A program made the translations under genes and the position numbers. The notes beneath the pieces were generated by a model. That model was not told where the DNA came from. It ran no database searches and was given only the letters and a program-made list of their open reading frames with translations. A stretch of DNA of 64,000 bases from NCBI RefSeq assembly GCF_001043115.1, contig NZ_LFME01000023.1:1-64000 (forward strand), in the 5' to 3' direction. The DNA comes from Xanthomonas sp. NCPPB 1128 (lineage in GTDB: Bacteria; Pseudomonadota; Gammaproteobacteria; Xanthomonadales; Xanthomonadaceae). This document shows, piece by piece, positions 51,770 through 53,821 of this stretch (the stretch's first letter is position 1; each line of letters starts with the position of its first letter).

Positions 51770-53821
51770 ATGGGCAAGATCATCGGCATCGACCTGGGCA
51801 CGACCAATTCGTGCGTGGCGATCATGGACGGCGGCAAGGCCCGCGTCATCGAGAATTCCGAGGGTGACCGCACCACGCCTTCGATCGTCGCCTACACCAA
51901 GGACGGCGAAGTGCTGGTGGGCGCCTCGGCCAAGCGCCAGGCCGTCACCAACCCCAAGAACACCTTCTACGCGGTCAAGCGCCTGATCGGCCGCAAGTTC
52001 ACCGACGCCGAAGTGCAGAAGGACATCGGCCTGGTGCCGTACGGCATCGTCCAGCACGACAACGGCGACGCCTGGGTGGCCACCGCCGACGGGCGCAAGC
52101 TGGCCTCGCAGGAAATCTCCGCGCAGGTGCTGGAGAAGATGAAGAAGACCGCCGAGGCGTTCCTGGGCGAGACCGTCACCGAGGCGGTCATCACCGTGCC
52201 GGCGTACTTCAACGACAGCCAGCGCCAGGCGACCAAGGACGCCGGCCGCATCGCCGGCCTGGACGTCAAGCGCATCATCAACGAGCCGACCGCCGCGGCG
52301 CTGGCCTACGGCCTGGACAAGGGCCAGGGCGGCGACCGCAAGATCGCGGTGTACGACCTGGGCGGCGGCACCTTCGACGTGTCGATCATCGAGATCGCCA
52401 ACGTCGACGGCGAGAAGCAGTTCGAAGTGCTGGCCACCAACGGCGACACCTTCCTGGGCGGCGAAGACTTCGACAAGCGCGTCATCGACTACCTGGTGGA
52501 AGAGTTCAACAAGGACCAGGGCATCGACCTGCGCAAGGATCCGCTGGCGCTGCAGCGCCTGAAGGACGCCGCCGAGCGCGCCAAGATCGAGCTGTCGTCC
52601 TCGCAGCAGACCGAAGTCAACCTGCCGTACGTCACCGCCGACGCGTCGGGCCCGAAGCACCTCAACATCAAGCTGACCCGGGCCAAGCTCGAGGCACTGG
52701 TGGAGGACCTGGTCAAGCGCACCATCGATCCGTGCCGCACCGCGCTGAACGACGCCGGCCTGCGCGCCAGCGACATCACCGAGGTGATCCGGGTCGGTGG
52801 CCAGACCCGCATGCCGAAGGTGCAGCAGGCGGTGGCCGAGTTCTTCGGCAAGGAGCCGCGCAAGGACGTCAACCCCGACGAGGCCGTGGCGCTGGGCGCC
52901 GCGATCCAGGGCGGCGTGCTGGCCGGCGACGTCAAGGACGTGCTGCTGCTCGACGTGACCCCGTTGAGCCTGGGCATCGAGACCCTGGGCGGCGTGTTCA
53001 CCAAGATCATCGAGAAGAACACCACCATCCCGACCAAGGCCTCGCAGGTGTTCTCCACCGCCGAGGACAACCAGTCGGCGGTGACCGTGCACGTGCTGCA
53101 GGGCGAGCGCGAACAGGCCCGCTACAACAAGTCGCTGGCCAAGTTCGACCTGTCCGGCATCGAGCCGGCCCCGCGCGGCCTGCCGCAGGTGGAGGTGTCC
53201 TTCGACATCGACGCCAACGGCATCCTGCACGTGTCGGCCAAGGACAAGAAGACCAACAAGGAACAGAAGGTCGAGATCAAGGCCGGTTCCGGCCTGTCGG
53301 ACGACGAGATCCAGCGGATGGTCGCCGACGCGGAAGCCAACCGCGAGGAAGACAAGAAGTTCCACGAGCTGGTGCAGGCGCGCAACCAGGCCGACGGCCT
53401 GATCCACGCCACCCGCAGCGCGATCACCGAGCACGGCAGCAAGGTCGGTGGCGATGTCATCGGCAAGGTCGAGTCGGCGCTGGCGGATCTGGAAACCGCG
53501 ATGAAGGGCGACGACAAGGGCCAGATCGAGGCCAAGACCAAGGCGCTGGAAGAGGCCGGTCAGTCGCTGTACGCCGCCGCGGCGGCGGGCGAGCAGCAGC
53601 CGGGCGGCAACGCCGGCGGCGCGCACGCGTCCTCGGCCCAGTCCGACGACGTGGTCGACGCCGAGTTCACCGAGGTCAAGGACGACAAGAAGGGAGCCGG
53701 GATTGGGGATTTGGGATTGGGGATTCGCAAAGGCCTTGTCCTGGTGGGTTCCCGCTCCCGATCCCTGTCCATGCAGTGCTTGCAAAAGCGGAAGAGCCCC
53801 GGCTCTCCGCTTTTGCCTTGA
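51770..53821 (+). CDS. dnaK: chaperone DnaK with a C-terminal extension from spacer repeat
   Basis: 683 residues. The ATPase domain (IGIDLGTTNSCV at 4-15), linker VLLLDVTPLSLG, substrate-binding domain and lid are all intact, and the usual Hsp70 C-terminal motif occurs as EFTEVKDDKK, ending at residue 641. Instead of a stop codon the frame continues for 42 residues (GAGIGDLGLGIRKGLVLVG...) that are encoded by a dispersed GGATTGGGGAT spacer and by a terminator-like hairpin. Normal DnaK is about 640 residues. DnaK, DnaJ and GrpE fold proteins and restrain RpoH. A sequencing error at the stop is possible. Confidence 0.96.
   Translation: MGKIIGIDLGTTNSCVAIMDGGKARVIENSEGDRTTPSIVAYTKDGEVLVGASAKRQAVTNPKNTFYAVKRLIGRKFTDAEVQKDIGLVPYGIVQHDNGDAWVATADGRKLASQEISAQVLEKMKKTAEAFLGETVTEAVITVPAYFNDSQRQATKDAGRIAGLDVKRIINEPTAAALAYGLDKGQGGDRKIAVYDLGGGTFDVSIIEIANVDGEKQFEVLATNGDTFLGGEDFDKRVIDYLVEEFNKDQGIDLRKDPLALQRLKDAAERAKIELSSSQQTEVNLPYVTADASGPKHLNIKLTRAKLEALVEDLVKRTIDPCRTALNDAGLRASDITEVIRVGGQTRMPKVQQAVAEFFGKEPRKDVNPDEAVALGAAIQGGVLAGDVKDVLLLDVTPLSLGIETLGGVFTKIIEKNTTIPTKASQVFSTAEDNQSAVTVHVLQGEREQARYNKSLAKFDLSGIEPAPRGLPQVEVSFDIDANGILHVSAKDKKTNKEQKVEIKAGSGLSDDEIQRMVADAEANREEDKKFHELVQARNQADGLIHATRSAITEHGSKVGGDVIGKVESALADLETAMKGDDKGQIEAKTKALEEAGQSLYAAAAAGEQQPGGNAGGAHASSAQSDDVVDAEFTEVKDDKKGAGIGDLGLGIRKGLVLVGSRSRSLSMQCLQKRKSPGSPLLP
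53697..53728. repeat. dispersed spacer repeat inside the dnaK frame
   Basis: Four GGGATT/GGGGAT units that match the intergenic spacer family, here translated as part of the DnaK tail. Confidence 0.8.
53781..53817 (+). terminator. terminator-like hairpin within the 3' end of dnaK
   Basis: GCAAAAGCGG and AGAGCC pair with GGCTCT and CCGCTTTTGC across a two-base loop. It would normally lie downstream of dnaK and could reduce transcription into dnaJ; here it lies before the stop at 53819-53821. Confidence 0.7.

What the first reader, a model, noticed from the sequence alone, without database searches (positions are those of the whole stretch)
53693..53821. DnaK reading frame extended 42 residues through an intergenic repeat and its own terminator
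The protein carries the normal Hsp70 end EFTEVKDDKK at residue 641, but the stop is missing. The frame goes on through a dispersed GGGATTGGGG spacer and through the terminator-like hairpin at 53781-53817, stopping at 53821. So a repeat seems to have replaced the stop codon, giving DnaK a basic tail (GAGIGDLGLGIRKG... ending RKSPGSPLLP) after the motif that normally contacts co-chaperones.
Basis: partly seen in the sequence, partly recalled or inferred. Interest (0 to 1): 0.7.

Follow-up and report, generated by a model that had tools for sequence, protein, structure and literature searches.

The report
DnaK reading frame extended by repeat
In this Xanthomonas genome the usual stop signal of the chaperone gene dnaK is missing, so the predicted protein gains 42 extra residues read from a common spacer repeat; the change was seen in this one draft genome only and may be a harmless mutation or an assembly error.

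Summary
The open frame is real: 51770-53821, 683 codons, an ordinary DnaK for 641 residues plus a 42-residue tail. In the five closest genomes the same kind of heptamer repeat already lies just after an intact stop; at the stop codon the window differs from its two nearest relatives by two adjacent bases. All 19 other genomes held for the genus, and all 95 loci with the same 36-base end, stop within one codon. The hairpin has no T run behind it; it sits in a predicted fold-back between dnaK and dnaJ. The repeat is a known G-quadruplex heptamer (PMC4692102). Seven of eight heptamer forms tried are open in all six frames, so a stop loss in front of it easily yields a tail. Such repeats already supply C-termini of other proteins in the genus: a TrmB-like methyltransferase in 18 of 20 loci, FolD in 14 of 20. 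The longest such tails change without codon-position bias, so they look tolerated rather than functional. DnaK's tail is probably a recent strain-level case; an assembly error at this repeat is a serious rival.

The parts
51770..53692 (+). dnaK, the 641 codons shared with relatives
   Evidence: 99.4 and 99.8% protein identity over residues 1-641 to the two nearest relatives
53693..53695 (+). GGA codon where the nearest relatives have a stop codon
53693..53818 (+). 42-codon extension of DnaK
53819..53821 (+). TGA stop now used; the last residue before it is proline
53699..53727 (+). left arm: four GGGATTN-type heptamers (known G-quadruplex repeat class)
   Evidence: class described in PMC4692102
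53782..53816 (+). hairpin inside the spacer, not a canonical terminator
53823..53852 (-). right arm: inverted heptamers just before the dnaJ start
53858..54988 (+). dnaJ
51102..51623 (+). grpE
49879..50937 (+). hrcA

Best explanation
A recent strain-level stop loss. The ancestral stop of dnaK lay directly before an older heptamer-repeat fold-back that fills the dnaK-dnaJ spacer. Two adjacent bases of that stop differ here, either by ordinary substitution or by copying from another copy of the repeat, whose commonest head GGAGCC has the same letters. Because the heptamers are open in frame, translation runs through the left arm, the rest of the spacer and the hairpin, and ends 36 bases before dnaJ. 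The product is a normal DnaK with an unstructured basic tail, most likely tolerated and without a function of its own. Shown: the open frame, the two-base difference, the older repeat, the absence of the tail in the relatives examined. Inferred: that the sequence is correct, that the tail is made, and that it is tolerated.
For: Stop within one codon in 19 of 19 other genus genomes and 95 of 95 loci; in the family search (247 genomes, 237 with a match, part of the rows not printed) the window's is the only listed row that covers the whole tail without a stop. Repeat already present after the stop in the five nearest genomes. Adjacent double differences specific to the window are not rare: 47 runs of two among 1,400 such differences in 58,671 compared sites. 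Seven of eight heptamers tried are open in all six frames. Such repeats code the C-terminus of a TrmB-like methyltransferase (18 of 20 loci), FolD (14 of 20), an SDF transporter (12 of 18) and a response regulator (5 of 11) in this genus, so tails of this kind are borne for long times. GGAGCC heads are old: 7 of the 12 head loci of this genome, among them the best donor candidate L128, align over about 3 kb with loci of relatives that were fetched for the same head.
Against: One draft genome of 71 contigs, no second strain, no reads. Only 2 of the window-specific runs of two or more differences lie in well-conserved surroundings (at least 93% agreement within 30 bases), and this is one of them. 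DnaK's end is strongly conserved: residues 626-641 are invariant in 31 aligned sequences, although those sequences were chosen by a match to this very end. The conversion route has homology on one side only; none of the 11 other GGAGCC copies matches dnaK upstream of the head. No evidence that the tail is translated.
Confidence: 0.6

Rival explanations
1. Assembly or read-correction error. Short reads from the dnaK copy of the repeat were corrected or joined towards the commoner GGAGCC head of other copies, so the stop was lost on paper only.
For: The letters gained are the commonest head of the repeat in this genome, 12 of 68 copies. The assembly breaks at this repeat: 4 of 68 heads lie within 100 bases of a contig start (C18, C23, C27, C33), where about 0.1 would be expected from 71 contig starts in 4.95 Mb (my arithmetic; contig far ends were not all checked). 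Another copy runs to the last base of C18 (contig length). None of the relatives examined shares the change.
Against: The repeat here is short and flanked closely by unique sequence on both sides, so reads should span it (inference; the sequencing method is not known to me). dnaK otherwise aligns without gaps to both nearest relatives at 98.6 and 98.8%, and in 56 window ORFs compared with two relatives I found no frameshifted gene.
Confidence: 0.33
2. The extension is selected. Ribosomes running through the left arm open the fold-back that pairs the region just after dnaK with the region just before the dnaJ start, and so raise dnaJ translation, or the basic tail helps DnaK itself.
For: The fold-back is strong in the window (z -5.4) and the spacer fold has negative z in 20 of 20 genus genomes (-2.0 to -8.8, 60 shuffles each); in the window it pairs up to the base before the dnaJ ATG. 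The two changed bases join that stem in the predicted fold. I see no Shine-Dalgarno-like stretch before dnaJ (by eye).
Against: Only one genome has it. The full arm-to-arm stem is not the predicted fold in every relative (for example G006, G007, G018 differ). In other genes the longest repeat-coded tails vary with no codon-position bias (188/106/180 differences at positions 1/2/3 for TrmB against 39/8/173 upstream), so their residues look unconstrained. The tail ends in proline, which can stall termination in E. coli (Hayes 2002, as cited in a passage of PMC7246954), so a cost is as likely as a gain.
Confidence: 0.05
3. One reading: a repeat inserted over the stop codon.
For: The changed bases extend the repeat head by three letters.
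Against: The repeat sits after an intact stop in the nearest relatives, and spacer lengths from stop to dnaJ ATG are 157-160 in the eight nearest genomes, against 162 in the window counted from 53695 (my count).
Confidence: 0.02

Closest known systems
GGGNATC heptamer G-quadruplex repeats of Xanthomonas and Nostoc (Rehm et al. 2015, PMC4692102)
   Same: Same heptamer type, preference for four units, inverted pairs, within 50 bp of the stop on the sense strand and upstream of the next ORF on the antisense strand; that paper also notes repeats that overlap stop codons and 7-11% intragenic ones, at least partly overlapping the ORF
   Different: In the parts I read (abstract, sections 10, 13, 14, passages) it does not discuss C-terminal tails of proteins; a search of its main text for dnaK, C-terminal, conversion and extension gave 0 hits each
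Stop-loss (nonstop) C-terminal extensions (general knowledge; PMC11502859 and PMC4494051 seen as search listings only)
   Same: A sense codon at the old stop, extension to the next in-frame stop
   Different: Here the extension passes a repeat that is open in all frames
Bacterial DnaK disordered C-terminus (passages of PMC7918210 and PMC8215388)
   Same: Keeps the acidic DDVVDAEFTEVKDDKK end
   Different: That end is no longer terminal; a basic 42-residue tail follows

Membership tests
DnaK (bacterial Hsp70) | HSP70 domain and DnaK equivalog score | tested here: met
   PF00012 869.1 bits; TIGR02350 934.2 bits against cut-off 822.55; NF001413 1021.1 bits against 648; one HscA subfamily model also just passes, 621.8 against 620
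DnaK (bacterial Hsp70) | Operon context hrcA-grpE-dnaK-dnaJ | tested here: met
   gene order by position and Pfam match; co-transcription not tested
DnaK (bacterial Hsp70) | Protein ends within a few residues of the EFTEV motif, as in relatives | tested here: not met
   47 residues after the motif against 5-8 in the relatives read
GGGNATC heptamer repeat class | GGGA-starting heptamers in tandem, many copies per genome, next to stop codons, inverted partner | tested here: met
   68 copies of one head in the genome; position and inverted partner
GGGNATC heptamer repeat class | G-quadruplex formation | not testable with these tools
   four G tracts present in the sequence; no biophysics possible
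Intrinsic terminator | Stem followed by a T run | tested here: not met
   0 found in 53500-54100
Functional, selected C-terminal tail | Conservation or codon-position bias in relatives | tested here: not met
   no relative examined has the DnaK tail; the longest TrmB tails lack the bias, the shorter TrmB set and FolD show a partial one

The most novel reading that the evidence does not exclude
The heptamer quadruplex repeats that sit at gene ends in Xanthomonas are a standing, genus-wide source of new protein C-termini, because they are open in every frame; TrmB, FolD and others captured them long ago and DnaK of this strain is the newest capture, with ribosomes now running through the quadruplex and the dnaK-dnaJ fold-back and so changing dnaJ output.
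Probability: 0.2. Interest if true: 0.65.

Novelty: new member of a known kind. Interest (0 to 1): 0.38.

Why it matters
If real, it is a natural test of whether the exact end of bacterial DnaK matters, and it shows how a common intergenic repeat turns into protein sequence. The wider pattern, repeat-coded C-termini in core enzymes with inherited frames but weakly constrained residues, is a tractable case of new protein ends arising from non-coding repeats. If an artefact, it warns that stop codons beside these repeats are weak points of draft Xanthomonas assemblies.

Tried and rejected
Insertion of a repeat over the stop: rejected. Terminator: rejected. A +1 difference at 6030 looked like a frameshifted gene, which would have argued for poor sequence; it lies between a minus-strand ORF and an ORF that looks like a cold-shock protein (that name is recalled, not tested) and was dropped. 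Quasi-palindromic copying from the right arm: the two new bases match it but the base next to them does not (by eye), so not favoured. The junction was sought in IMG/VR: 0 hits. The structure model is poor overall (mean pLDDT 53.8, 31 rows); residues 608-683, native end included, are below 50 with no secondary structure, which agrees with disorder but proves little; I did not search it against fold libraries. Papers: PMC4692102 abstract, sections 10, 13 and 14 and passages; PMC7918210, PMC8215388, PMC7246954 and PMC6764699 passages only; all others search listings. Published work on the dnaK operon of Xanthomonas campestris is recalled only; I saw none in the listings.

Gene ends in the window. 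One search compared 56 ORFs with two relatives and flagged 12 with ends that differ by 8 residues or more, dnaK among them. Of the other 11, nine were scanned against Pfam: only the EAL-domain ORF 8585-10018 has a match, and its end differs among all three genomes (14, 16 and 5 residues beyond the shared part). Two (w96, w231) lie across the minus-strand ORF and the cold-shock-like ORF. So dnaK is the only clear gain there, but C-termini of another gene do vary.

Limits of counts. One search examined 95 loci (80 with titles printed) chosen by an exact 36-base match to the dnaK end, so it is blind to relatives whose end differs. One search drew 247 family genomes; 10 had no match and part of the match list was not printed. 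Of the 22 listed rows other than the window's own that showed no stop inside the match, I fetched 20 (G065 and G146 left out); all 20 end 6-8 residues after the EFTEV motif. Repeat-coded tails were judged by eye. TrmB-like: 18 of 20, one not (L351), one not read by my motif (L347). FolD: 14 of 20 heptamer-coded; two end in another dispersed repeat (L297, L298), one stops one codon after EAAEAA (L294), three have no repeat (L300-L302). SDF: 12 of 18 orthologue loci, five without, one not read (L324). Response regulator: 5 of 11 loci, five without, one not read (L313); one of the five (L306) has a stop inside the match. In one search heads were compared with 25 relatives' loci out of the 51 copies listed.

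Full report
What is there. The frame at 51770-53821 (+) encodes 683 residues: a full DnaK whose ordinary end, DAEFTEVKDDKK, is at residue 641, followed by 42 more residues and TGA. It lies in the order hrcA-grpE-dnaK-dnaJ. The new stop is 36 bases before the dnaJ ATG.

Relatives. The held genus set has 20 genomes, the window's included; 19 of 19 others stop directly after the final KK or one codon later. An exact search for the 36 bases that encode the DnaK end gave 95 loci, 80 of them with titles printed, mostly Xanthomonas, Stenotrophomonas and kin; 51 stop at once and 44 after one codon. In 247 family genomes the window's was the only listed match that covers the tail with no stop; 20 relatives whose match held no stop were read and end 6-8 residues after the EFTEV motif. 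So the tail is specific to this genome as far as these sets reach.

Cause. Heptamer repeats stand after an intact stop in the five nearest genomes, and at the stop codon the window differs from the two nearest by two adjacent bases. Adjacent double differences specific to the window number 47 runs of two in 58,671 compared sites, near the 33 or so that chance spacing of 1,400 differences would give (counts, expectation my arithmetic); but only two runs lie in well-conserved surroundings, this one included. The result reads GGAGCC, the head of 12 of 68 copies of the repeat start GCCGGGATTNGGGATT in the genome (GGA is the commonest triplet there); the same head is found in five relatives at 51 of 403 copies. 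The best-matching donor copy (contig C6, L128) matches 38 bases at 97%, and its surroundings align with a G009 locus fetched for the same head (L157). Copying from such a copy is possible but unproved.

Real or artefact. Contigs of this assembly start at this repeat more often than expected (and the rivals section), so an error is plausible. Against that, dnaK aligns to both nearest relatives without gaps. In a comparison of 56 window ORFs with two relatives, 12 were flagged for ends that differ; dnaK is the only one that gains a tail on an otherwise complete, Pfam-supported protein. One other Pfam-supported ORF (EAL domain, 8585-10018) has an end that differs among all three genomes, and the rest had no Pfam match or lie across other ORFs. 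I put 0.6-0.65 on a real change.

Spacer. The two arms of heptamers, one after dnaK and one inverted before dnaJ, form a long predicted fold-back with an inner hairpin: -88.2 kcal/mol, z -5.4. All 20 genus spacers fold better than the mean of their shuffles (z -2.0 to -8.8), though in three of them 1-2 of 60 shuffles do as well and the full arm-to-arm stem is not the predicted fold in all. The terminator scan found none. The layout fits the published description of these repeats (PMC4692102: abstract, sections 10, 13 and 14).

The wider pattern. The heptamers GGGATTC, GGGATTG, GGGATTT, GGGAATC, GGGACTC, GGGACCC and GGGAGTC are open in all six frames; GGGATTA is not. Looking at the 67 other copies of this head in the genome, 14 long frames run into the repeat and end there; seven were scanned and five have Pfam domains: FolD, a TrmB-like methyltransferase (Methyltransf_4; the name TrmB is recalled), an SDF transporter, a response regulator and an MscS-like protein. 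The first four were followed in relatives. TrmB-like tails such as PGLGIGD or RESGTGNGESEAPSSAAPR come in two heptamer types. Frames and lengths are kept within the sets compared, but in the longest set (9 of 9 TrmB-like tails of 22 codons) differences fall at codon positions 188/106/180, against 39/8/173 just upstream. A smaller TrmB-like set (6 of 6 tails of 11 codons) gives 5/20/27 against 13/8/76, and FolD (11 of 11), whose stretch includes some native codons, 84/81/179 against 0/10/369. So the residues look weakly constrained. I saw no paper on repeat-coded C-termini in Xanthomonas in the listings; that covers open-licence PMC papers only.

Consequence. DnaK's acidic end supports client handling and fitness in other bacteria (passages of PMC8215388 and PMC7918210) and here stays intact but is no longer terminal. 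The tail is predicted to be unstructured in a weak model. It ends in proline before TGA, a context reported to stall termination in E. coli, relieved by the ssrA system (Hayes 2002, as cited in a passage of PMC7246954). Most likely effect: a tolerated tail with a small cost, and ribosomes that traverse the fold-back before dnaJ. All of this paragraph beyond the citations is inference.

Noticed in passing
G000 contig C9 (L241, L283) and relatives L284-L302: FolD ends in a repeat-coded tail (AAGIGDSGLGIR and variants) in 14 of 20 genus genomes.
   Followed up: partly
G000 contig C10 (L244, L334) and relatives L335-L353: A TrmB-like methyltransferase ends in repeat-coded tails of two heptamer types in 18 of 20 loci.
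   Followed up: partly
53858 and upstream: dnaJ appears to lack a Shine-Dalgarno sequence; its start is preceded by the C-rich inverted arm of the repeat in the window and its near relatives (by eye).
   Followed up: no
54995-55100; FolD ends in L297 and L298: A second dispersed repeat (of the type GGGATGACCAGCCATTCGGCTG) stands after dnaJ and supplies the FolD end in two relatives.
   Followed up: no
82-97, and contig starts C18, C27, C33 of G000: Contigs of this assembly start at copies of the heptamer repeat, the window's own contig C23 included.
   Followed up: partly
40988-41339: tmRNA gene with tag ANDDNYALAA.
   Followed up: no
L090: A record titled Bacillus subtilis carries a Stenotrophomonas-like dnaK end, which looks like a mislabelled or contaminated assembly.
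   Followed up: no
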